Origin: Lachnospiraceae bacterium
GTDB lineage: Bacteria; Bacillota; Clostridia; Lachnospirales; Lachnospiraceae
NCBI GenBank assembly: GCA_017532145.1
Contig: JAFXJR010000024.1
Location: 1-45,295 of the forward strand
Reading direction: 5' to 3'
DNA length: 45,295 bases
Positions 3,034 through 31,754 of the stretch are shown piece by piece. Below the pieces are notes generated by a model. The model did no database searches. It was not told the DNA's origin and worked only from the letters and a program-made list of their open reading frames with translations. Positions within the stretch are counted from its first letter, which is position 1; each line of letters begins with the position of its first letter. Made by a program: the position numbers and the translations under genes.

Positions 3034-3070
3034 CATCAGATTTCTATTTAAAAAAAATAGTGATATAATG

Positions 3071-6371: not shown

Positions 6372-6692
6372 TTATAGGATTTGAATAATCTTTAAAATTT
6401 TTTCTTTTTTGGAGTCGTCACAATTTTGCAATGCTCTCAAAATTTCATTATCCAGTGCCAGTGATGAGTTTTCATACTGATTGGATAAAAGATAGTCGAT
6501 GGAGGTATCGAGGGCATTGGCGATAGCCAGTAGGACATTTAGGCTAACCTTAGTATGATTATTCTCAATGTTGGAAATATGGGAGGTATTGCAGCTGACA
6601 ATATCAGCCAGACGGTCCTGTGTAAGCCCTTTATGGATTCTTAGTTCTTTTATTTTAGTGCCTAATTTGGCATAATCAATTTCCTGCTGCAT
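6372..6692 (-). CDS. XRE family transcriptional regulator
   Basis: A 106-residue protein with a single N-terminal Cro/C1 helix-turn-helix (residues about 10-65: LGTKIKELRIHKGLTQDRLA, then CNTSHISNIENNHTKVSL) and a short helical C-terminus. The layout is typical of small repressors. It is transcribed away from the NACHT/kinase cluster across a 261-bp intergenic region that also holds repeat R4. Divergence makes it a plausible regulator of that cluster; this is inference from position. AAAGGAA precedes the ATG. Confidence 0.88.
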   Translation of the reverse strand: MQQEIDYAKLGTKIKELRIHKGLTQDRLADIVSCNTSHISNIENNHTKVSLNVLLAIANALDTSIDYLLSNQYENSSLALDNEILRALQNCDDSKKEKILKIIQIL

Positions 6693-6732
6693 GGAAATAA
6701 TTCCTTTCTGGTTTATGTAGGTAAATTATTGG

Positions 6733-6818
6733 TAATGATTCAGCAGGTCTGCACACTTGCTGTGCTGACCATAAAAAAGGTAGTGGTAACAACGTGACGG
6801 TGACGTACTGAACAGTCA
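6733..6818. repeat. Dispersed palindromic element, copy R4 (86 bp)
   Basis: Left end TAATGATTCAGCA, right end TACTGAACAGTCA, inner hairpin GGTCTGCACA...TGTGCTGACC intact. The flanks share AATTATT (6724-6730 and 6820-6826), a 7-bp direct repeat. It lies between the divergent XRE gene and the NACHT cluster, where it could affect expression of either. Confidence 0.83.
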
Positions 6819-6953
6819 CAATTATTATTTATTGTAGTCTTTGCCATTGGATGATAGAATAATCTAAATAAATAAAAAATACTTATATAGAAAATATAAA
6901 AAGAGATAACAAAGGGCATCTTATACCGATGGAAAAAGGAAGGGAGACAACAA

Positions 6954-7551
6954 ATGAAAATATTTCAGATAGAAGAATCACAGATAAATGCGATAAGAGA
7001 AGAAAAGCTGGCAGAAAAAAGTGAAATTTTTGATAGATTTTGTGAAGAATATGGCAAAAAAATAAAGTATGACATCTATGTATCCCAGCGCTGGGATATT
7101 CTGTTATCCTCAAAAGAAAAAAAAAGAGATGATGGATATTCTTCTACTGATTATCTGTTCAGGAAAGCTTTCTATCAGCTTAAATGGAGTCAGAATAGAA
7201 GGAGGAGACGACAGCCCGCTCTATCAGGTAAAATTTCAAGATAATGAAAATGGAATGCAAAAAATGTCCTTTTTTGATGGAGACATTATTAAGGTTAGTG
7301 CAGAAGTACTAAACCGAACCGAGGCTTCCAGACTGGCTTTGCTTATCGATTCATTTCGTAAAGGCATACTTATTGTTACTGAGGCTTCCATCCTGTCTGC
7401 AGCCAGTAAGGATTTTATCTATAAGATGGATAAAAAGGGGAATATGATTGCCTTGCGAGATACCAGTGAAAGTATGGAGACCTTTATGGAAGAAGACGAA
7501 TTGTTCAGGGAAATATGTGAGAAAGAATGCAGTGATGAAAGTGAAGATTAG
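6954..7551 (+). CDS. Unknown protein, first gene of the NACHT cluster, split by a +1 frame change at an A9 tract
   Basis: Two overlapping frames read as one protein. The first (from ATG 6954, preceded by GGAAGGGAG) runs to 7244; the second runs from about 7126 to 7551. The switch point is nine A residues at 7117-7125. With eight A the frames fuse into one 198-residue protein in which RWDILLSSKEKK continues into EMMDILLLIICSGK. After the tract the first frame becomes arginine-rich and unlike protein (WSQNRRRRRQPA), supporting fusion. The joined protein is soluble-looking, helical at the N-terminus and beta-rich in the middle, with an acidic tail. I recognise no family. It may be a phase-variable gene, a slippage-read gene, a real mutation, or a sequencing error. 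Confidence 0.6.
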
Positions 7552-7562
7552 GTGGTAGAAAG

Positions 7563-7575
7563 TAACTGTTCAGCA
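7563..7575. repeat. Isolated arm resembling the dispersed element
   Basis: TAACTGTTCAGCA equals the terminal arm of the R-family, but no inner hairpin or opposite arm follows. It may be a decayed remnant between the first two genes of the NACHT cluster, or chance. Confidence 0.35.
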
Positions 7576-7683
7576 CTTTGACAGCTATACTTTAATGCAG
7601 TATCTGATGATGCTCAAGAAGAAAACAGGTATAGGTTATGAACAACATAGGATGAAGAAAGTAAGAAAAGGTAGGCGGAAACA

Positions 7684-9729
7684 ATGAATTTATTGGAATG
7701 GTATCAAGAAAACCCTGGAAGCTACCATTTGATGGGAGCAGCAGGTGCGGGAAAAACTACATCTTTACAGTATATGAGTCGAGAACTATTGAAGCAGGAA
7801 TACCAACTGAAAGGGGGAGCAGTCATCGTTCCCATTTACCTTAAAATGGCAGAACTGAATACAAGGCGGATAGAAGCAGATGCTTTGTACAATTATATCG
7901 GGAGTAAGTATTTTGAAACCTGTACCCCAGAGGTATTGGACAGGATGTTTGCTGAGAGTGTAGATTATCGGTTTGTTTTATTGTTGGATGGGGCAAATGA
8001 AGTATTGAATCATACCACAAATGGGGTTCAGTCCGTGTATTCTATTCTGGAAAATGACATTCACCAGCTGTTAGCTCATCCCTGTGTAGACATTATTGTG
8101 ACGACCAGAGAAAATGGCGAGATTTTTAATGGTTCTTTTAGTGCATTGTTTCAGCGTTTGTATCTGTGTCCTCTAAATCGCTGGCAGATCCTGAGATATA
8201 TGGGAACTGAGGAGAGCAACTTTGATAACAGTCAGGAGGAAATGGTATCCAATCCTATGTTGCTTCGGATGTTTCGTCGAGTGTATAATTATGATAGAGC
8301 CAGAGCAGTCAACCTAAAGAATAAGTATCAGTTAATGAAAGAATATTTTTCTCTAGATGTAGAATTGAAGCAGGAGAAAGAACGGATTGATGATATTATC
8401 AAGGTGAGGCGGTATATTTTGGAGCAGATTTTACCTTATATGGCCTATGAAACAGAGTGTTGGCTGTTAGGGGAAGAACAGTCTGAACCTTCTTATGAGG
8501 AAGTATTGGATGGGGCTATGGAAAAAGCAGCAAAGTGTGGATATCATAAAGAAGTGATACAGAGAGTTCTTCAAATGATGGACTTGGTAGGAGAAAATCT
8601 CATTTTTTCTCATGACTTAATTCGGGAGTATCTGGCATTGGAGGAGTGGAACAGACGAGTGGCTTGTAGAGAAAAGGGAGTGGAAGACTTTTTAAAGCAG
8701 GTAATTAGTCAAATTCAGTATCAAGGTACTTCGGATTTAACCCGGCGAACCAGACATCTGGATTTGGCAGAGCTGTTTATTGGTTGTTATGAAACAGGTT
8801 TGATTGACAGACTGAAGGAAGCAGGAAGTGAATCAGAAAATGCAAGGATACTCACCCAAAGCTTGTATCAGGAGATAGCAGGAGTCTATGATGACCTAGG
8901 TAGGCAATACGGTACTCGTGCTATGGAATATGGATGGAAAGCCGTTGGATTATTGGAGGGCATGCGAATGGAGGATAATCTGGAAATGGCGGAAAAGCTG
9001 AATTTTTTATTCTACTGTACATTAAAAGGAAAAAAAGAAAGCAGTGAAGATCCATTAAAATTGTTGAATCAGGCGGAATCTTTAGTAAAAGTATATGAAA
9101 GTCAGGAGAATGATGAAAAACAGCGAGAAAGAGTTTATAGATTGCATGGAAAAATTATTTCCAATAAAGGGGCTTATTATTATTCAGAGAACTATGGCAA
9201 TGATTTGGAAGAGGCCATAAGATGGCATAAGGAGGCATTGGATTATCGAGAGAAACGGAAGTTGAAAAATGATGTGTATCAGAGCTATCGAACACTAATG
9301 TCAGATTATTGGAAGATACAGGATTATAAAACCTCCTATAATTATTATCAAAAGTTGTTGGAGGGAATGTTGTCTAATTTGGGAACAGAGGAAAAGAAGC
9401 TGACTAAACTATCAGAGTATAGAGCATTGGGATATGGAGAAGTGAGAGGCTTAGCTTCAGTTGTAGAACGAGGAATGGGGAGTGAACTTGGCTTGTTGAA
9501 ACAGTCACTGGAAGAAAAGGAAAGGGCAGAGATTGAAGAGGAGCTTTGTGCGGCTATTCCTTATGTTTTTGAAGAATTTTCTGATTCTTCCAGAAGAAGT
9601 GACAGGGATACTTTAAAATCGTTGAAAGATAAACTGGATAAACTGCAGGACTTAGCACATAGGGAGGAATTAAAGATTGTGGTACAGGATTATCTGAAAA
9701 AATGTAAAGAGATACTGGGGGAAGAATAA
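7684..9729 (+). CDS. NACHT-type STAND NTPase with C-terminal helical repeats
   Basis: The NTPase domain begins at the extreme N-terminus: Walker A GAAGAGKT at residues 18-25, Walker B FVLLLDGANEV at 97-107, sensor-like IIVTTRE around 137-143, the NPMLL motif at 190-194, and the NACHT winged-helix motif FSHDLIREYLALE at 308-320. The rest to residue 681 is helical and TPR-like (for example AIRWHKEALDYREKRKL). NACHT proteins are signal-sensing switches that oligomerise on activation and occur in bacterial antiphage and programmed-death systems. No effector domain precedes the NTPase, so an effector would have to act in trans. It is 4 bp upstream of the next gene. Start supported by AGGTAGGCGG. 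Confidence 0.85.
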   Translation: MNLLEWYQENPGSYHLMGAAGAGKTTSLQYMSRELLKQEYQLKGGAVIVPIYLKMAELNTRRIEADALYNYIGSKYFETCTPEVLDRMFAESVDYRFVLLLDGANEVLNHTTNGVQSVYSILENDIHQLLAHPCVDIIVTTRENGEIFNGSFSALFQRLYLCPLNRWQILRYMGTEESNFDNSQEEMVSNPMLLRMFRRVYNYDRARAVNLKNKYQLMKEYFSLDVELKQEKERIDDIIKVRRYILEQILPYMAYETECWLLGEEQSEPSYEEVLDGAMEKAAKCGYHKEVIQRVLQMMDLVGENLIFSHDLIREYLALEEWNRRVACREKGVEDFLKQVISQIQYQGTSDLTRRTRHLDLAELFIGCYETGLIDRLKEAGSESENARILTQSLYQEIAGVYDDLGRQYGTRAMEYGWKAVGLLEGMRMEDNLEMAEKLNFLFYCTLKGKKESSEDPLKLLNQAESLVKVYESQENDEKQRERVYRLHGKIISNKGAYYYSENYGNDLEEAIRWHKEALDYREKRKLKNDVYQSYRTLMSDYWKIQDYKTSYNYYQKLLEGMLSNLGTEEKKLTKLSEYRALGYGEVRGLASVVERGMGSELGLLKQSLEEKERAEIEEELCAAIPYVFEEFSDSSRRSDRDTLKSLKDKLDKLQDLAHREELKIVVQDYLKKCKEILGEE

Positions 9730-9733
9730 TTAG

Positions 9734-11803
9734 ATGAAGGGAAGGGAAATGCGGTATGAGCTTGGAAAGGCCATTTATACTCGGATCGGATTCCAAAAAG
9801 AAAAATGGACAGAGGATGTGGCAGATAGGCTGAAAAAAGGCTTTGAAGAAGGGAAGATATTGGAAAAGCTGGGATATTCCCCTCGGGTAGCAGTGAAAAA
9901 AAGCTGGTGTACAAGGATGAAAGAGCTACTGAAGGTCTGTGTGGATACAAAAACTGATGGATTTAAGGAAATATCCGATTATGGGGTGGAATCACATCTG
10001 GAATTAAATTATAAGGAAGATGACAAGATAGAATTGAGAGAGATACTCTTTCTGTTTTTTTATTTGATAGAATGTAAGCAGTGCGAAAACAAATACCTTG
10101 TACTATTTAAAAGGATGATAGAGGCAGCAGAGATTGCATATGAGCTGGAACGGTATGAGGATATGAATACAGCTATTCTCTATTTTGTCATTAAAAAAGA
10201 GCTTGGATTTGATAGATGGAAAGAGCTTCTTAAAGACTGGCACGAAAACGAAAAAGAGAATTGGAGTGGGAATCTGTCGATTATTCGCCAAAATAACATT
10301 ACCGATTTAACCTACAAAACAATAAATAATATGTTAAAGAATGGTGTAGAAGGTGAGATAGCTTTGTTGGAGGCAGAGAAGATACATGAGAGGAAGACGA
10401 GGCTTTCCCTACAATATATTAAGAACACAATGGAGGATGTGTTTCTCAATCCAGAATTAAATGATAAAAATAAGATAAGAGAAATCTTTGACTCGTCTAT
10501 AATTCAACATATTTTAAATGTGCAGATTCGACGACAGTGGTATTTTTTTAGGATGATTTCTACCATTGTACATAATCAGATTGAGGATATTGTAAGTTGC
10601 TTAAATGATCTTAGAAACTGTCAGGATAGACAAAGGAAGAAGGAGTATGAAAAAATGCTGTCAGATATGCTTCACTTCTTTTGGGGAGAGAAGGAGAAAG
10701 AGGAGACGGAAAGAAATGGACATCCTTTCCATATTGGTGATAAGAACTGGGGGGAAGTAGCCACTCATCTTAACTATCTGGAAAATATAAACATACAGAA
10801 TATAAAAGAGGATTTGATGAATTCCCGAATTACTGTAGGAAAGATTTGTGCTGCCTTTAATACTTATTTTGATGGAATGAAAATGGATAATGCAAGAAAA
10901 GAGTCTCCTGGTGCCATAGCAAGATTTCGTGAGAGATATCAATATTATATTCAGAGATTTAATATCGGAAGGGAGGAAACAAAAGAAGTTGAGGTGAGCC
11001 TGTGGTTAGAGGAGATGCAGGAGTTTTTGGTTCAGGAGGAAAGAGAATGCTTGTATTCTTATTTAATACCTTATGATTATAGGGATGCAGTGGAGGCGTA
11101 TTTGACTCGTCACTCTCTTCCAGATAAACTACCGGATATTTCAGACAGTCGAAGCTTAGAAGAAGACAGAGCGTTTGATGATTCAGATGGGATAACTGCA
11201 TTTTTTCAAGAGATTCTGGGATGTAGTGAGGAGCAAAAGGATAGGATTTTTAATATAGCTAAGAATGAGGGAATAAGTAAAGCAAAAGAAGAATTTTTAG
11301 CTTTGGGAAAGCCAAAGGGGCTGTCAGAAAAATTTTTAAAATATGTGTGGAAGAAGTGGGCGGATGATTTTTACCCTGTAAAACAGTATCCACGTTTTGG
11401 CGAAACTAAGATTAGAAACCTCTTCTGTAAAGACCATGAAGTAAGTAGAGAGCTACTTCTGTTGACTGTTCTATTAAAAAAGGTAATAGTAGGAGGAACA
11501 GTACAAAAGAAGTCAGCTATTATACGTATGCTGACCAATTGCCGACTTTCTCCTGAGTTTGCAGATACAGTCTTTGAAAAATATGTAGAAGCTGCTTTTG
11601 ATGATATGAATAAAGAAGATAACGGAAAGAATACTTATGAGGAAAGGTATAGGAGGCGAGCTTCCAGGATGCGGATACTGAATGAGCAGTCTTTGGAGAT
11701 GGAGCTGAGCTACCTAAAGGGAATCTATGATAAGGATGGACATTTGGTAGAGAGGGGTACTGCTGTATTTGCAGATGCTTTTTTTGGAAGGAGGATTGAA
11801 TAG
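9734..11803 (+). CDS. Unknown 689-residue protein of the NACHT cluster
   Basis: I do not recognise this protein. It is predominantly helical, charged, without signal peptide or membrane segments. The C-terminal region (from about residue 480) has short helical units (FQEILGCSEEQKDRIFNIAK, LSPEFADTVFEKYVEAAF) and a basic patch YRRRASRMR near residue 640. It starts 4 bp after the NACHT stop and ends one base before the kinase ATG, so the three genes are almost certainly one transcript. An alternative ATG at 9749 has AAGGGAAGGG in front; the first ATG at 9734 follows GGGGGAAG at a better distance. It could be an adaptor, sensor or effector of the cluster. Confidence 0.75.
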   Translation: MKGREMRYELGKAIYTRIGFQKEKWTEDVADRLKKGFEEGKILEKLGYSPRVAVKKSWCTRMKELLKVCVDTKTDGFKEISDYGVESHLELNYKEDDKIELREILFLFFYLIECKQCENKYLVLFKRMIEAAEIAYELERYEDMNTAILYFVIKKELGFDRWKELLKDWHENEKENWSGNLSIIRQNNITDLTYKTINNMLKNGVEGEIALLEAEKIHERKTRLSLQYIKNTMEDVFLNPELNDKNKIREIFDSSIIQHILNVQIRRQWYFFRMISTIVHNQIEDIVSCLNDLRNCQDRQRKKEYEKMLSDMLHFFWGEKEKEETERNGHPFHIGDKNWGEVATHLNYLENINIQNIKEDLMNSRITVGKICAAFNTYFDGMKMDNARKESPGAIARFRERYQYYIQRFNIGREETKEVEVSLWLEEMQEFLVQEERECLYSYLIPYDYRDAVEAYLTRHSLPDKLPDISDSRSLEEDRAFDDSDGITAFFQEILGCSEEQKDRIFNIAKNEGISKAKEEFLALGKPKGLSEKFLKYVWKKWADDFYPVKQYPRFGETKIRNLFCKDHEVSRELLLLTVLLKKVIVGGTVQKKSAIIRMLTNCRLSPEFADTVFEKYVEAAFDDMNKEDNGKNTYEERYRRRASRMRILNEQSLEMELSYLKGIYDKDGHLVERGTAVFADAFFGRRIE

Positions 11804-11804
11804 G

Positions 11805-13037
11805 ATGAGCAGACTGACATTAGTGGGGGAAAAGGAAGAGTTTCCAGGTGTGATGCTTTATGTAGATAAATACGGAATAGAAAAGATTTATGCTTATGCG
11901 GTAATTGGAAAGGGAGCAACTGCGATTGCATATAAGGGAGTAAGAATAAGCGGAGACCGAGAGGAGGCTTGTATCATCAAGGAATATTTTCCTGAGCTAG
12001 AGGGGGAAAATTATTGTAGTAAGTTGGTTTATACCAGAGATAAGGTAGGAAATCCAGTAAAAATCGTTGTTAAAGATGATAGAAAGACTCCAGAAGAAAA
12101 GGAGCGGCTGATTGAGGAAGAGAAGAAGCGACAGGAACAGAAGATAAAAATGGAATGTGAGATTGTTCGTCGAATGTATTTTGATGGAGAAGACAATAAT
12201 CCATATATCAAAAAGGCAGAGATTTTACCTAGGATGGAGAATAGGGGAGATACTTTGTATGTGGTATTGGATACAGCAAAGGGACAGACCTTGCATAGTT
12301 TGATAAGAGAGCAAGGAAGATTTTCTATAGAAGTTGCTGTGGATTATTTAGAGAAATTGTTGGAAATAATCCATACCCTGTTAGGAGAGAAATTTTTACA
12401 TGGAGATATTAAGCCCGAAAATATTTGGTTACAGGGAAATGTTCCTAATCAGCAGATGGTCTTATTGGATTTTGGAAGTGCCTTTGCTTATCAAGATTAT
12501 CAGGTAGAGATAAAGAAGCCGGAGGGATTGCGTGCATGGGCAGATGGACTGTTGGAGAACACAGGAATCGGAACCTATAGTGAAGGATATGAGTCGCTCC
12601 TTATCAAACAATTTGCAGATGCAAAGGAGAACTATGCAAATGAGGACGGAGATGATGAAGAGGGATGTACAAAACGAGCAGAAGCACTTTTAAAGATAAT
12701 GAATCAGCTAAATATTTCTGTAGACATTTTTAGTGCAGTACAAATGTTCTTTTATATGATAACGGGGACTATCTATACGGAAGAAGTGGTAAGAGAAGAA
12801 CTGATTCGTGAACTTAATTTATCGGAATTGGTGATCGACTATCTGTTGGAGATGATGATGAAGAATCAAGACAATTACTATACGTCGGTAGATAAGGTAA
12901 AGGAAGATTTAAGGGTATTACAGACGCTATATGTGAAAGGAGCACATCCCAAGGTATTGATTCAAAACCTGCGTCAGAGTATGCTCAAATCAATGGAAAT
13001 AGATACAGTATTATTAGGAGAAGTAAAAAAAGGTTAA
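11805..13037 (+). CDS. Serine/threonine protein kinase
   Basis: A 410-residue eukaryotic-like kinase. Motifs counted from the ATG at 11805: glycine loop IGKGATAIAY at 34-43, catalytic lysine K59 in IIKEYFP, catalytic loop HGDIKPEN with D201, K203 and N206, and DFGSAF at 222-227. All residues for phosphotransfer are present. An insertion of charged helix (residues about 92-125) lies between the lysine and the hinge. There is no transmembrane segment or PASTA repeat, so it is cytosolic and not a PrkC-type wall sensor. This start was chosen over an in-frame ATG at 11769 because GGAAGGAGG precedes it and it lies just after the upstream stop. Cluster position suggests it phosphorylates a partner in the NACHT system. 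Confidence 0.9.
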   Translation: MSRLTLVGEKEEFPGVMLYVDKYGIEKIYAYAVIGKGATAIAYKGVRISGDREEACIIKEYFPELEGENYCSKLVYTRDKVGNPVKIVVKDDRKTPEEKERLIEEEKKRQEQKIKMECEIVRRMYFDGEDNNPYIKKAEILPRMENRGDTLYVVLDTAKGQTLHSLIREQGRFSIEVAVDYLEKLLEIIHTLLGEKFLHGDIKPENIWLQGNVPNQQMVLLDFGSAFAYQDYQVEIKKPEGLRAWADGLLENTGIGTYSEGYESLLIKQFADAKENYANEDGDDEEGCTKRAEALLKIMNQLNISVDIFSAVQMFFYMITGTIYTEEVVREELIRELNLSELVIDYLLEMMMKNQDNYYTSVDKVKEDLRVLQTLYVKGAHPKVLIQNLRQSMLKSMEIDTVLLGEVKKG

Positions 13038-13092
13038 GCACAGGAATGCTATAGATAATCAGGCTGCGACAATATACTAAAGGGGTAGACGG

Positions 13093-14145
13093 ATGGAAAA
13101 GGGTACCTATATCTTTGATCATATTTTATGGAATATTATTTTATTTATGTGGGGAAAGCATCTTCTGTTTTGCTGTCTGTCTGGCTTTACCTATAGTGAG
13201 TCACTACTGATTCTTGGGCTAATCATTCTGTTAGTAACGGTGGCAGGAATTGCTATGACTTGGAAAGATAAAAAAAGCTTTCTTAATATACTTGGTCATA
13301 TTATTACTGCCTGGGGCATTTATACGGCGATAGCCTATCTGGATTTTTTTAAAACCAGACTAATTCTTATTGGCGGAATTACTCTTGTTATCACTATACT
13401 GATGATACTTCTTATTTTATTTTATAAAATGAAAAAACCAATGAAAAGGAAAAGAGTAATCAGAAGAAAGATGAGAATGGTGATTCGATGTGTACATAGA
13501 AATGTAATGATTTCTATGGTAATTTTTGTTTTTCCAATAGTAATATCTTCATTTTTCCGAGGAACAATACTCAATGCAGAAGTAGAGGCTACCAGAGTCT
13601 ATGGGGAGGAGCATAGTTTAGATGCCAATATGGAAATTATTGCTGATATTGACCCTGAAAGATGGGAAAGGTTAGATCTTCAACAGAGACTGAATGTCTG
13701 TCAAACCATTATAAATTGTGAAGCTTATTCTCTGGGACTAAGTCACGAAGTTTCAGTAGGTGTGGTAGAGATGAAAGAAGCAATTGTGGGAGGATATGAT
13801 GCTGTTCGGCATCATATTGCCATCGACATTAATCATCTAAGAAATGAACATAGCTATGAGATTTTGAATACGTTGATTCATGAAATTACCCATGCTTATC
13901 AGTATGAACAAGTACATTTATATCAGACCTTAGATGAAAAGTACCGAAATCTGGTACTATTTTCTGATGCCTCTGTATATATGAAGGAGTTTGCTAATTA
14001 CCAAAATACAGAAGATGGAGTAGAAGAATACTATAATCAGAAGGTAGAAGCAGATGCCAGAGAAGCAGCTGAAATTAAATCTACAGCATATATACAATGG
14101 ATAAATGAATATTGGGAAAAGATGCAAGATGATGAAGAGTATTAA
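13093..14145 (+). CDS. Membrane-anchored zinc metallopeptidase (HExxH)
   Basis: A 350-residue protein with about five hydrophobic segments in residues 10-155 (around 13-31, 36-55, 62-84, 91-111 and 138-154) followed by a soluble domain. That domain has a zinc-protease motif HEITH at 263-267, with downstream E319 in KVEADAREAA as a possible third ligand in gluzincin fashion. The basic stretch KKPMKRKRVIRRK (113-125) before the last segment suggests that loop is cytoplasmic, which places the peptidase domain outside the membrane. The exact family is not recognised. It follows the kinase by 55 bp, with AGGGG before the ATG, and is followed by a strong terminator, so it probably ends the operon. 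Confidence 0.75.
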   Translation: MEKGTYIFDHILWNIILFMWGKHLLFCCLSGFTYSESLLILGLIILLVTVAGIAMTWKDKKSFLNILGHIITAWGIYTAIAYLDFFKTRLILIGGITLVITILMILLILFYKMKKPMKRKRVIRRKMRMVIRCVHRNVMISMVIFVFPIVISSFFRGTILNAEVEATRVYGEEHSLDANMEIIADIDPERWERLDLQQRLNVCQTIINCEAYSLGLSHEVSVGVVEMKEAIVGGYDAVRHHIAIDINHLRNEHSYEILNTLIHEITHAYQYEQVHLYQTLDEKYRNLVLFSDASVYMKEFANYQNTEDGVEEYYNQKVEADAREAAEIKSTAYIQWINEYWEKMQDDEEY

Positions 14146-14197
14146 TTGCTTTGTGGTTATGAGTGGCTGTATTCGTTTTGGTATAATGAAAATAAAG

Positions 14198-14235
14198 AAA
14201 AAATCTCTATTATAATAAAATAATGGAGATTTTTT
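14198..14235 (+). terminator. Rho-independent terminator after the metallopeptidase gene
   Basis: The stem of about 15 bp, AAAAAATCTCTATTA (14198-14212) with TAATGGAGATTTTTT (14221-14235), has one mismatch and runs into a T tract. It probably terminates the operon from 6954 to 14145. Confidence 0.85.
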
Positions 14236-14368
14236 TGTTTGCTCAATAAGGGATGGAAATATTATTTTTGGTAGAATAAAAATACGAAACTATGGTTGAG
14301 GATAGTTTAAAATTAATAAATAGGGTACTTTGATAACAGAGGATAAAGGTCAGAAAGGAGAAATGAAA

Positions 14369-14605
14369 ATGGATAATTTATTAGATGATATTTATGAAAA
14401 GGTACTCTGTTATGAAAAAGAAATGCAGAAGGCAGAGAAGCGGTTGGAGCTGGAGGTGGAGAAATTGTTGTACCCTTATAAGGATATTTGGAATGAAGAT
14501 GATATAGGTACCATTCGAGAACTGATATATGCCTTCCAGGTGAAGGCAATAAAAGAAGGAATAAGACAAGGGATGAAATTGGGAATTGATTTATTGAGGG
14601 GATAA
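14369..14605 (+). CDS. Small helical protein of unknown function
   Basis: A 78-residue acidic/charged helical protein (MDNLLDDIYEKVL...GIRQGMKLGIDLLRG). The ATG at 14369 was chosen because AGGAG lies 8 nt upstream; a more distal in-frame ATG at 14363 is too close to it. The length and the C-terminal F-x-x-G-x-x-x-G-like helix resemble small DUF6809-type proteins of Lachnospiraceae, but I am not sure. It sits after the cluster terminator and so has its own transcript or weak read-through. Confidence 0.6.
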   Translation: MDNLLDDIYEKVLCYEKEMQKAEKRLELEVEKLLYPYKDIWNEDDIGTIRELIYAFQVKAIKEGIRQGMKLGIDLLRG

Positions 14606-23562: not shown

Positions 23563-24672
23563 ATGCCATTTACTATTATACGAAACGATATTACTAAAAT
23601 GCAGGTAGATGCTTTAGTCAATCCTGCCTGTCCTCTGCCGGAACTGCAGGGCATCGTCAATCAGGCGATTCATCAGGCAGCAGGTTCCAAGCTACTGAAG
23701 GTAAGAAAGAAAGCTGGAATAATGCGAACAGGAGACATTTTACTTACCAAAGGTTATAAGCTGCCTGTCAAATATATTATTCACATGGTGGGACCGGTAT
23801 GGCAGGGTGGCAGGCAGGGAGAGATTCAGACTTTACTTGACTGTTATGAAAAGGTACTGCATTTGGCTCTAAAAAAGCACTGTAAGTCCATTGCCTTTCC
23901 GCTGATTTCCACAGAAGCCTATGGATTTCCTAAAACCAAGGCTTTACAGGTGGTGGTTAATGCAGTCAGTGGATTTTTGATGGAGCATGACATGATGATC
24001 TATTTGGTGATTTTGGATACAGAAGCCTTTCGGTTATCAGAACAGCTTTTTCAGGATGTGAAAAGCTATGTGGAGGAAACGCAGGTAGTAGATTTGCTGA
24101 ATGAGGAGATGGAAACCGCAGTTATCTTATCTGATGATGAGCCAACAGAGAAGGATTATTTTTTCGGTGAAAAGCCAATCCCCTTGCGTTCTGTCTCTTG
24201 TGAAAGGTCAGCAGATAGGTCTTATGCATCTGATGATATGTCGTGTTCTTTATCCAGTAGTAGTCTGGATAAAAATGGGGTTTCTTTGCCAGATTTAAGA
24301 GAAAGAATGGGACAGGTAAAGGAATCCTTTTCCAAAATGCTGTTACGTCTGATTGATGAAAAAGGAATGAAGGATCCAATCGTATATAAAAGAGCCAATT
24401 TGGACAGAAAGCTGTTTTCCAAGATACGTAAAAAGGAGTCCTATCAGCCCAGCAAGGCGACTGCTCTGGCTTTGGCTATTGCTTTGGAATTAAGTCTGGA
24501 AGAAACGGCAGATTTGTTAAGTCGTGCAGGCTATGCTCTGTCTCCCAGCAGCCAAACCGATTTGATTGTGGAGTATTTTATTTTAAACCATAATTATAAT
24601 ATTTTTGAGCTAAATGAAGTACTGTTTGCTTTTGGGCAGCCTATTCTGGGAGAAGAAAAAAGCCGATTGTAA
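23563..24672 (+). CDS. Macro-domain (ADP-ribose-binding) protein with C-terminal helical domain
   Basis: Residues 1 to about 165 form a macro domain: NDITKMQVDALVNPA, GTGD-like MRTGDILLTKGY, YIIHMVGPVW, and SIAFPLISTEAYGFP. Such domains bind or hydrolyse ADP-ribose and related nucleotides. After a serine-rich linker, the C-terminal part (about 255-369) is helical with an HTH-like arrangement (PSKATALALAIALELSLEET, then LLSRAGYALS), a layout I associate with clostridial macro proteins. A vWA gene follows within about 150 bp. AAAGGAG precedes the ATG. Whether it removes ADP-ribose or only binds it cannot be told. Confidence 0.85.
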   Translation: MPFTIIRNDITKMQVDALVNPACPLPELQGIVNQAIHQAAGSKLLKVRKKAGIMRTGDILLTKGYKLPVKYIIHMVGPVWQGGRQGEIQTLLDCYEKVLHLALKKHCKSIAFPLISTEAYGFPKTKALQVVVNAVSGFLMEHDMMIYLVILDTEAFRLSEQLFQDVKSYVEETQVVDLLNEEMETAVILSDDEPTEKDYFFGEKPIPLRSVSCERSADRSYASDDMSCSLSSSSLDKNGVSLPDLRERMGQVKESFSKMLLRLIDEKGMKDPIVYKRANLDRKLFSKIRKKESYQPSKATALALAIALELSLEETADLLSRAGYALSPSSQTDLIVEYFILNHNYNIFELNEVLFAFGQPILGEEKSRL

Positions 24673-24674
24673 AT

Positions 24675-24698
24675 GTCGCTTCCCGGGCGACCTGTTTT
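24675..24698 (+). terminator. Short GC hairpin with T tract after macro gene
   Basis: GTCGC (24675-24679) pairs with GCGAC (24687-24691), followed by CTGTTTTT. It is a plausible intrinsic terminator for the macro gene, which would give the vWA gene separate transcription. Confidence 0.55.
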
Positions 24699-24819
24699 TC
24701 TTCAGGAAGCATTATACTTGTGACAAGATAGTGATGAACAACAAATTTGTTGAAGAAAGCACCATAGCATTATTTTACTTTAGCATCAATGGAAGATAAG
24801 TATAATGGAGGAAAATCAA

Positions 24820-25512
24820 ATGGGATTAAAAGATAGATTAGAATTTCAAGAAAAAAGTAAACCAGAATATACAGAAATTGTGTTTATTCTGGATCGCAGT
24901 GGCTCTATGTCCGGTTTGGAAGCAGATACCATCGGAGGATTTAATACGATGTTGGAGAAGCAGAAAAAGGAGCCGGGAGAAGCAGTGATATCTACTATTT
25001 TATTTCATTCAGAAAGTCAGGTGATTCACAATCGCCAGAGTCTGGAAGAAGTTTTGCCTATGACAGATAAGGATTATATTCCTATGGGAAGTACTGCTTT
25101 GTTGGATGCTTTAGGAGATGCGATTACCCATATTTCTCAGATACATAAGGAGATGAAGAAGAAGTACAAGCCAAAGAAAACCCTTTTTGTTATTATAACA
25201 GATGGTGAGGAAAATTCCAGCAGAAAATATTCCTATGCTCAGATTAAAGAGATGATTCAGAAGAAAAAGGAAAAGAAGAATTGGGAATTTCTCTTCCTTG
25301 GTGCCAATATGGATGCGATTGCAGCAGCAGACAGGATAGGTATCCATGAGGACAGAGCCACTACCTTTTTGTGCGATGAGGAGGGAACAGCTCTAAATTA
25401 TGAAGAAGTTACTGCAGTTCTTAGTCAGGTCAGGGATGGAACAGTACCTTTGGGTAGAAAGTGGAAGAATAGAATAGAGCAGGATGTAGCAAAACGGGGA
25501 GGTTTTGTATAA
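24820..25512 (+). CDS. Cytosolic von Willebrand factor A domain protein (TerY-like)
   Basis: A 230-residue single-domain protein without signal peptide. The MIDAS metal site is complete: DRSGS at 25-29, the threonine loop GSTALLDAL, and ITDGEE. It resembles TerY-like intracellular vWA proteins, which are metal-dependent interaction modules. The ATG at 24820 was chosen because GGAGG is 8 nt upstream; the ATG at 24805 overlaps that site. Pairing with a macro-domain gene suggests a joint function in nucleotide or ADP-ribose signalling or stress, which is inference. Confidence 0.85.
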   Translation: MGLKDRLEFQEKSKPEYTEIVFILDRSGSMSGLEADTIGGFNTMLEKQKKEPGEAVISTILFHSESQVIHNRQSLEEVLPMTDKDYIPMGSTALLDALGDAITHISQIHKEMKKKYKPKKTLFVIITDGEENSSRKYSYAQIKEMIQKKKEKKNWEFLFLGANMDAIAAADRIGIHEDRATTFLCDEEGTALNYEEVTAVLSQVRDGTVPLGRKWKNRIEQDVAKRGGFV

Positions 25513-30257: not shown

Positions 30258-30356
30258 GGGCAGTACATTAGTTATGTGTAAGTGTCAAAGAGCATAGCGA
30301 ATGTCTGTTTTGACGAACAGTATCTCTGGGGCAGATTTTGGACAGGAGGAAGGCTT

Positions 30357-31754
30357 ATGATAGATTTTGAACGTATCAGTCAATATCATGAAAACAATCG
30401 AATAGAAGCAAAGCGTTCTTTGGGAGGGCTGCCAAAAAGTCTGTGGGAGACCTATTCTGCCTTTGCCAATACCTATGGAGGAATCCTGCTGCTGGGAGTG
30501 GAGGAGCTGTCAGACAAGTCCTTTCAAACAGTGAATTTGCCCTGTCCTGAGAAGCTGGTGGAAGAATTTTGGGAAATTATTAATGACAGGGAAAGAGTAA
30601 GTGTCAATATTTTAAAAAAGCAGGATGTAACGATTCAAACGATAGGAGAAGACAGGATTATCAGCATTATGATTCCCCGTGCAGACAGAAGGAATAAGCC
30701 GGTATATATCGGGGGAAATCCTTATTTGGGCAGCTATCGCAGAGATGGGGAAGGAGACTACCACTGCAGCAGAGAAGAAGTACAGACCATGCTGCGGGAC
30801 AGGGAGGAGAGAACCCAGGATGAAAAGGTACTATTTCATAAGGATACCAGTGTTTTTGACAGAGAGACCATAAGAAGATATAGGACATATTTAGAAGATA
30901 TTCATACGGGATATGACTGGAAACAGTATGAAGATGATCAGATATTGTGTGGGATAGGTGCAGCACAGAGGGATGAAGAAGGGCTGCTGCATCCTACTGC
31001 TGCCGGTCTGCTTGTCTTTGGCTTTGAGGATGAAATTGTTCGGGAATATCCTTATTTTTATCTGGACTATCAGGAAAGAATGGGAGAAAAAGGGCTGACA
31101 GAGAGGTTGGTGTCCAACTCAGGAAAATGGAGTGGTAATCTGTTTGATTTTTATCTAAGAATCTCAGGAAAGGTAGTGCGGGGGCTGCCCTCCGACATTC
31201 ATCGGGCAGTACGGGAGGCAGTGGCTAACTGTATGGTTAATGGTGACTATCTGGGCAGGGGTGGCCTGGTGATTGTGAAGAAAAAGGATGATTTGCGTAT
31301 TTCCAATCCGGGCAGCTTTCGTATCGATATTCGGGACGCAGTAAATGGGGGAAAGTCGGATCCAAGAAACGCTTTGATTGCCAGAATGTTTAACTTAGTA
31401 AAGGTAGGCAGTCGTACAGGTAAAGGTGTGCCGGATATTTATCAGGTATGGGAAAAGAAGGGGTGGAAAATGCCGCAGGTGAAGGAAAGACTTCAGCCTG
31501 ACCGAATTACAGTTAAGCTGCCTCTCTATGAAGATAATACTGCTCAGTTGGATGAAAGATTTTTCGGAAAATATCAGAAATACAGAGATGATTTAATCAA
31601 TTATGTGACCAGAGTGATTCAGGTGGAGAACATTACCGTCATGGAAAGGCTGGCATTGGACAGACAGGAGGCAGAGCAGCTTCTGCAGCAGATGGAAGAA
31701 GAGGGTATTCTGATGCCTATGGAAGGGGAGAATGGATACCGGCTGAAAATATAG
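30357..31754 (+). CDS. AlbA_2 / HATPase_c_4 domain regulator (Schlafen-like AAA_4)
   Basis: The 465-residue protein starts with an AlbA_2 (AAA_4, Schlafen-like) domain: IEAKRSLGGLP, then AFANTYGGILLLGV. The C-terminal half contains an ATP-binding C-terminal helicase-like module (HATPase_c_4) with REAVANCMVNGDY, SRTGKGVPDIYQ and a winged-helix tail. Such proteins are usually annotated as putative DNA-binding or transcriptional regulators. The ATG at 30357 was chosen because AGGAGGA is 6 nt upstream; an in-frame start 75 bp earlier has no ribosome site. It stands alone, about 100 bp after the GDPD gene. Confidence 0.85.
   Translation: MIDFERISQYHENNRIEAKRSLGGLPKSLWETYSAFANTYGGILLLGVEELSDKSFQTVNLPCPEKLVEEFWEIINDRERVSVNILKKQDVTIQTIGEDRIISIMIPRADRRNKPVYIGGNPYLGSYRRDGEGDYHCSREEVQTMLRDREERTQDEKVLFHKDTSVFDRETIRRYRTYLEDIHTGYDWKQYEDDQILCGIGAAQRDEEGLLHPTAAGLLVFGFEDEIVREYPYFYLDYQERMGEKGLTERLVSNSGKWSGNLFDFYLRISGKVVRGLPSDIHRAVREAVANCMVNGDYLGRGGLVIVKKKDDLRISNPGSFRIDIRDAVNGGKSDPRNALIARMFNLVKVGSRTGKGVPDIYQVWEKKGWKMPQVKERLQPDRITVKLPLYEDNTAQLDERFFGKYQKYRDDLINYVTRVIQVENITVMERLALDRQEAEQLLQQMEEEGILMPMEGENGYRLKI

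What the first reader, a model, noticed from the sequence alone, without database searches (positions are those of the whole stretch)
6372..14605. Candidate undescribed system: XRE + small protein + NACHT NTPase + 689-aa unknown + Ser/Thr kinase + membrane metallopeptidase
Four genes packed head to tail (4-bp and 1-bp gaps, then 55 bp) join a NACHT switch, an unrecognised large protein, a kinase with intact catalytic residues and a membrane-tethered zinc protease, followed by a strong terminator. A regulator sits divergently and a frameshifted small gene leads. NACHT proteins and kinases are established parts of bacterial antiphage and conflict systems. This combination, with a NACHT lacking a fused effector, does not match one I know. 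I infer that sensing is by the NACHT repeats, relay by the kinase, and output by the protease or the unknown protein.
Basis: partly seen in the sequence, partly recalled or inferred. Interest (0 to 1): 0.75.

Follow-up and report, generated by a model that had tools for sequence, protein, structure and literature searches.

The report
Clostridial NACHT-kinase-protease operon
A bacterium of the Clostridia carries a compact run of four genes (an immune-receptor-like switch, an unknown protein, a protein kinase and a membrane zinc protease) that looks like a rare version of a known class of bacterial immune or conflict modules, and relatives of its protease sit beside other immune-receptor-like genes.

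Summary
Window 7684-14145 is a tight run: NACHT, 689-aa unknown, Ser/Thr kinase, membrane HExxH protease, with gaps of 4, 1 and 55 bp and a strong terminator. A divergent XRE gene and a small gene split between two frames lie upstream. The same four-gene set was found nowhere else. The unknown protein was found only in its own genome (1 of 397 family genomes, 1 of 16 of the genus), the kinase in 1 of 378, NACHT in its own genome plus two weak hits.

Another family genome has a kinase-NACHT fusion protein (L204). And the widespread protease family, though mostly elsewhere (often by conjugation coupling-protein genes, 9 of 63 loci within 5 kb), sits next to a NACHT gene (L120), a TIR/P-loop/LRR gene (L096) and a kinase gene (L123). 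The region is specific to this genome, between blocks that are apart in congeners.

Best reading: an accessory STAND/NACHT conflict module whose outputs, kinase and probably membrane protease, are separate proteins. A new variant of a known kind.

The parts
6372..6692 (-). XRE-family regulator, 106 aa, divergent
   Evidence: HTH_3 1.5e-14; generic HTH matches in PADLOC and PHROGs
6954..7551 (+). small gene split between two overlapping frames (6954-7244, 7069-7551); overlap holds a run of nine A
   Evidence: pieces searched apart, no match above a cut-off
7684..9729 (+). NACHT STAND NTPase, 681 aa, P-loop at residues 18-25, TPR-like C-terminus by eye
   Evidence: NACHT 2.3e-7, motifs, relatives weak
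9734..11803 (+). 689-aa protein of unknown family, no hydrophobic 19-residue peak
   Evidence: no match above a cut-off; own genome only; hydropathy
11805..13037 (+). Hanks-type Ser/Thr protein kinase, 410 aa, HGD D201 and DFG present
   Evidence: Pkinase 8.8e-15; motifs; best PDB sequence match death-associated protein kinase 3, 1.3e-9
13093..14145 (+). membrane HExxH metallopeptidase, 350 aa, hydrophobic peaks 11-29, 38-56, 90-108, 137-155, HEITH at 263-267, invariant E319
   Evidence: matches in 24 of 397 genomes, own included
14197..14236 (+). intrinsic terminator closing the unit
14330..14605 (+). 91-aa ORF beyond the terminator, probably not part of the unit
   Evidence: no match

Best explanation
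An accessory STAND/NACHT conflict module, probably anti-phage or anti-invader. Shown: NACHT, kinase and protease families with intact motifs, operon-like packing and terminator, absence of the 689-aa protein from the 15 congeners searched, a kinase-NACHT fusion in another family genome, and protease relatives directly beside NACHT, TIR/P-loop/LRR and kinase genes elsewhere in Clostridia. Inferred: the C-terminus of the NACHT protein senses a cue; ATP exchange drives oligomerisation; having no fused effector, it works through separate proteins, the 689-aa protein as scaffold or adaptor and the kinase as signalling output; the membrane-tethered protease is a second output or executor at the membrane; the outcome is growth arrest or death of the infected cell. 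The XRE protein is inferred to tune expression.
For: Motifs and families; packing and terminator. L204:8824-11796 has Pkinase 117-283 (2.3e-19) then NACHT 371-522 (3.6e-12); it is the best match of the window kinase, after itself, among 8124 ORFs of the fetched pool (phmmer 4.2e-9), a pool enriched in NACHT loci; pairwise hhalign 96.8% (kinase) and 94.6% (NACHT). Protease relatives: in L120 a 1097-aa protein matching a NACHT profile built without it (1.7e-10) ends 204 bp before the protease, same strand, with a second NACHT-like protein upstream (Pfam 2.4e-4, below cut-off); in L096 a 1248-aa protein with TIR (SARM1 1.6e-22), P-loop and LRR (9.1e-59) follows directly; in L123 a 1461-aa protein with a kinase domain (7.3e-11) ends 202 bp before it. 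Rough chance: 16 other NACHT matches in 195 genomes, at an assumed 2900 genes each, is about 3e-5 per gene, so about 0.004 NACHT genes expected among about 126 direct neighbours; one was seen. Window region genome-specific.
Against: No second genome with the set. 0 of 15 stretches around the other 16 family NACHT matches hold a protease relative by profile (E up to 1) or a separate kinase (E up to 0.01). Three STAND/kinase neighbours among 63 protease loci is few, and the loci are in different architectures. The window NACHT did not list L204 at E up to 1 in phmmer. PADLOC named no defence family for NACHT, the 689-aa protein or the protease; the kinase core matches its PD-T4-6 models (1.8e-18), as kinases generally may. 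The chance estimate is by hand and mixes collections. Genome 87% complete in 134 contigs, so a chimeric contig cannot be fully excluded. No function tested.
Confidence: 0.55

Rival explanations
1. Two modules side by side: a NACHT/689/kinase conflict unit and an independent membrane protease that came with mobile or conjugative DNA.
For: The 55-bp gap is the widest and the protease has the lowest GC3 of the four (0.279 against 0.36-0.38). Its family is within 5 kb of a coupling-protein gene in 9 of 63 loci, beside a relaxase gene in L104 and, in L136, with relaxase, coupling proteins, ClpP, ParA and SSB genes.
Against: No terminator-like site between kinase and protease on the + strand; direct STAND or kinase neighbours in L120, L096 and L123.
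Confidence: 0.22
2. A regulatory or surface-biology cluster serving the next genes (vWA-SLH protein, MBOAT, AlgX-like).
For: Those genes follow; a vWA-SLH relative lies near the right-hand block in the congener closest by hflX (43%).
Against: A terminator and 954 bp lie between; no operon counterpart in the 9.6-kb contig L178.
Confidence: 0.1
3. A decaying or chance accretion of orphan genes in a rearranged region.
For: No relatives with the set; split small gene; genes that follow hflX in the closest congener are on another contig here.
Against: Four ORFs of 350-689 aa without internal stops, intact motifs, packing and terminator.
Confidence: 0.08

Closest known systems
bNACHT defence proteins, clade 14 (PMC12169576, passages)
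   Same: NACHT switch without a discernible fused effector
   Different: No SNaCT14 match here while L203 and L212 match it; the passages describe single proteins, here an operon
STAND/EAD conflict systems with kinase or peptidase effectors (PMC8195603, PMC7159879, PMC10907252, passages)
   Same: NACHT-type NTPase with kinase or peptidase effectors, partly as separate proteins
   Different: No recognised adaptor domain; a membrane HExxH protease and a 689-aa partner are not in the passages read
Kinase-NACHT fusion L204:8824-11796 (found here)
   Same: Same two domains, same bacterial family
   Different: One polypeptide with a hydrophobic segment at 735-753; its 473-aa neighbour shows no detectable relation to the 689-aa protein
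L120 NACHT-protease neighbours (found here)
   Same: NACHT gene directly before a relative of the same protease
   Different: No kinase found there; NACHT protein of 1097 aa not detectably close to the window's (BLASTP E 0.51)
AVAST (Avs) systems (general features recalled)
   Same: STAND ATPase logic
   Different: Fused effectors as recalled; no PADLOC match for the NACHT protein

Membership tests
NACHT clade of STAND NTPases | NACHT domain above the Pfam cut-off | tested here: met
   31.2 bits against 26.7
NACHT clade of STAND NTPases | Walker A, Walker B, C-terminal sensor repeats | tested here: inconclusive
   Walker A at 18-25 and VTTR at 139; LLLDGANE read by eye (the longer spelling sought was not found); TPR sub-threshold
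bNACHT clade 14 | SNaCT14 domain | tested here: not met
   absent at E up to 1; present in L203 and L212
Tripartite antiviral STAND proteins | fused N-terminal effector | tested here: not met
   P-loop at residue 18; open frame only 684 aa
STAND/EAD conflict systems | adaptor domain shared by NTPase and effector | tested here: inconclusive
   no such Pfam match; distant adaptors may be unseen without structures
Any defence system | protects against phage or other invader | not testable with these tools
   bench assay needed
Conserved multi-gene system | same four genes together in several genomes | tested here: not met
   none found; part pairings only (L204, L120, L123)
Protease family of alignment A1 | HExxH and conserved acidic residue with hydrophobic N-terminal segments | tested here: met
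   E264, H267, E319 in 11 of 11 aligned sequences, the window's included, H263 in 10 of 11; hydropathy of the window protein

The most novel reading that the evidence does not exclude
A bacterial NLR-like cascade of four separate proteins: a NACHT switch, through a large orphan adaptor, turns on a kinase that licenses a membrane-anchored zinc protease. The protease family would be a reusable membrane executor plugged into NACHT, TIR/P-loop/LRR and kinase modules across Clostridia.
Probability: 0.2. Interest if true: 0.78.

Novelty: new variant of a known kind. Interest (0 to 1): 0.48.

Why it matters
If true, this is a bacterial NACHT switch wired to a kinase and a membrane protease through separate proteins, closer in layout to animal signalling cascades than to single fused effectors. 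The fusion in L204 makes the NACHT-kinase half testable, and the neighbours of the protease in L120, L096 and L123 point to an unstudied membrane protease family as a recurrent partner of immune-receptor-like proteins.

Tried and rejected
My first scan for NTPases and kinases near protease relatives (letter patterns, 52 loci) was faulty: it missed the NACHT protein of L120, the TIR/P-loop/LRR protein of L096 and the kinases of L032, L123, L125 and L133. On re-checking I replaced it by profiles and neighbour lists over all 64 stretches (63 with the protease by BLAST, L057 without; four duplicate loci L099, L100, L109, L126 dropped). A draft that said no protease relative lies beside a NACHT gene was wrong; because of this I raised the best explanation (0.50 to 0.55) and the novel case (0.12 to 0.20) and lowered the two-module rival (0.30 to 0.22). 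Profile hits that are not STAND or kinase partners: L042 is ClpB-like by eye, and L094, L118, L040, L041 and L102 gave short or generic P-loop matches. Other P-loop neighbours (L111, L112, L133) look like other ATPases by eye. A group of weaker, shorter relatives with a small partner gene (L043, L047, L055, L056, L059) may be another family. Kinases lie in 6 of 63 loci (L030, L032, L123, L125, L133, L136), two of them PASTA-type.

A wider vWA-Macro-kinase-protease system (L032; window 23563-25512) was rejected: the vWA gene is in 54 of 190 genomes, Macro in 26 of 29 of its held loci other than the window's, and in G009 and G118 it is on another contig than the protease relative.

Full report
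What is there. The 91-aa ORF at 14330 lies beyond it. The window is a whole contig of a 2.6 Mb, 134-contig, 87% complete genome. That the organism belongs to Lachnospiraceae is inferred: G357 of the same genome family matches strain XBB2008 in contig length and place.

What the proteins are. NACHT 31.2 bits against a cut-off of 26.7; Pkinase 8.8e-15; the protease has only weak SprT-like matches (0.019 in Pfam; 4.8e-5 to an NCBIfam SprT model, 23 bits against a cut-off of 113); the 689-aa protein matches nothing above a cut-off. The P-loop starts at residue 18; in nine other family NACHT proteins scanned the NACHT match starts after residue 200 in eight and at 131 in one. In the protease E264, H267 and E319 are invariant in 11 of 11 aligned sequences, the window's included.

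How rare. 689-aa protein: 1 of 397 family genomes and 1 of 16 genus genomes at E up to 10, its own each time; no match in plasmids, phages, viral contigs or genome contigs (the two contig scans see close relatives only). Kinase: 1 of 378 at 1e-15. NACHT: 3 of 397 at 1e-3, its own and two weak ones. Protease: 24 of 397, own included, 42 loci in genome contigs, one viral contig, none in phages or plasmids.

NACHT and kinase. NACHT at 1e-7 or better is in 12 of 196 family genomes, own included. The 16 other matches lie in 15 fetched stretches, two of them short (L206, L208). A kinase profile at E up to 0.01 and a protease profile at E up to 1 found in these only one kinase, fused to the NACHT of L204; HExxH letters occur in L207, L212 and L213 proteins that do not match the protease. 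The fusion has Pkinase then NACHT, the motif HLDISPDN but no DFG, and is the best match of the window kinase in the pool after itself.

Protease and its neighbours. Of 64 stretches, 63 hold the protease by BLAST. Coupling-protein genes lie within 5 kb in 9 of 63 (Pfam confirms L121, L136 and L093). Direct same-strand neighbours include a 1097-aa NACHT protein in L120 (Ruminococcus sp.), a 1248-aa protein with TIR, P-loop and LRR in L096 (Candidatus Paralachnospira), and a 1461-aa protein with a kinase domain in L123. In L096 the two reading frames meet: the protease ORF ends at 3048 and a methionine before the TIR domain lies at 3068. The P-loop of L096 matches the NACHT profile only weakly (0.0043), so it may be another STAND clade. 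In L123 the PDB search gave only weak kinase matches (0.0018). For L120 the PDB search gave nothing; its NACHT reading rests on the profile and on Walker motifs seen by eye. So the protease is a modular gene with several kinds of partner, NLR-like and kinase proteins among them.

Genome setting. hflX is in 16 of 16 genus genomes, with the two genes before it in most stretches. No BLAST match (1e-4) to the operon proteins was seen in the 15 congener stretches (L091 and L092 are short, and the hflX ORF of L086 was apparently displaced in the listing by a longer overlapping ORF). The two genes that follow hflX in the closest congener are on another contig here. To the right, HAD, PHP, ABC ATPase and GDPD genes form a block kept in most of nine congeners examined, far from hflX where contigs are long (G398: 1.80 and 3.06 Mb). 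The region between is genome-specific, by insertion or rearrangement; GC 0.34-0.39 in the four genes against 0.425-0.452 in hflX and the two genes before it.

Mechanism. A NACHT switch without a fused effector needs a partner. The kinase is the best-supported one (packing, fusion elsewhere). The protease is supported by packing and by neighbours of its relatives. The 689-aa protein as adaptor is pure inference. Papers seen in passages: PMC12169576, PMC8195603, PMC7159879, PMC10907252, PMC13236601 (a rare CARD-NLR-like lysis operon). Paper searches listed none that by title or start of abstract describes this combination; they cover only the held library.

Verdict. A real accessory operon, best read as a new variant of NACHT-type conflict modules, with a protease family that deserves study. 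Not shown to be a conserved four-gene system.

Noticed in passing
L096:2933-6679: One 1248-aa bacterial protein with TIR (SARM1 1.6e-22), P-loop and BspA-type LRR, the layout of plant TIR-type NLRs, directly after a protease relative that carries an extra C-terminal region.
   Followed up: partly
L204:8824-11796: Kinase-NACHT fusion with a hydrophobic segment at 735-753, preceded by a 473-aa protein without a Pfam family: possible membrane-bound NLR-like kinase.
   Followed up: partly
L120:1-9871: Two NACHT-like proteins, a protease relative and two small proteins alike to each other by eye, in one direction.
   Followed up: partly
L123:4838-11029: PP2C-like protein by eye, 1461-aa kinase protein with a nuclease-like C-terminus by eye, then the protease relative.
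   Followed up: partly
L136:2929-9020: On a 125-kb contig of the viral collection with relaxase, ParA and SSB genes: PfkB, protein kinase, ClpP, coupling protein and protease; ClpP-like plus coupling protein near the protease recurs in L033, L093 and L115.
   Followed up: partly
23563-25512: Macro gene followed by a vWA gene, a common pair in the family (54 of 190 genomes; Macro in 26 of 29 held loci).
   Followed up: partly
L205, L206 (G007:C32): Three NACHT genes close together; the two scanned carry pentapeptide repeats and DUF6273.
   Followed up: no
L035:564-3605: Protease copies, one interrupted by masked letters, alternating with secreted-looking proteins.
   Followed up: no
30282-31754: Schlafen AlbA_2 protein with a partial PADLOC pAgo-model match, 9.1e-9.
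   Followed up: no
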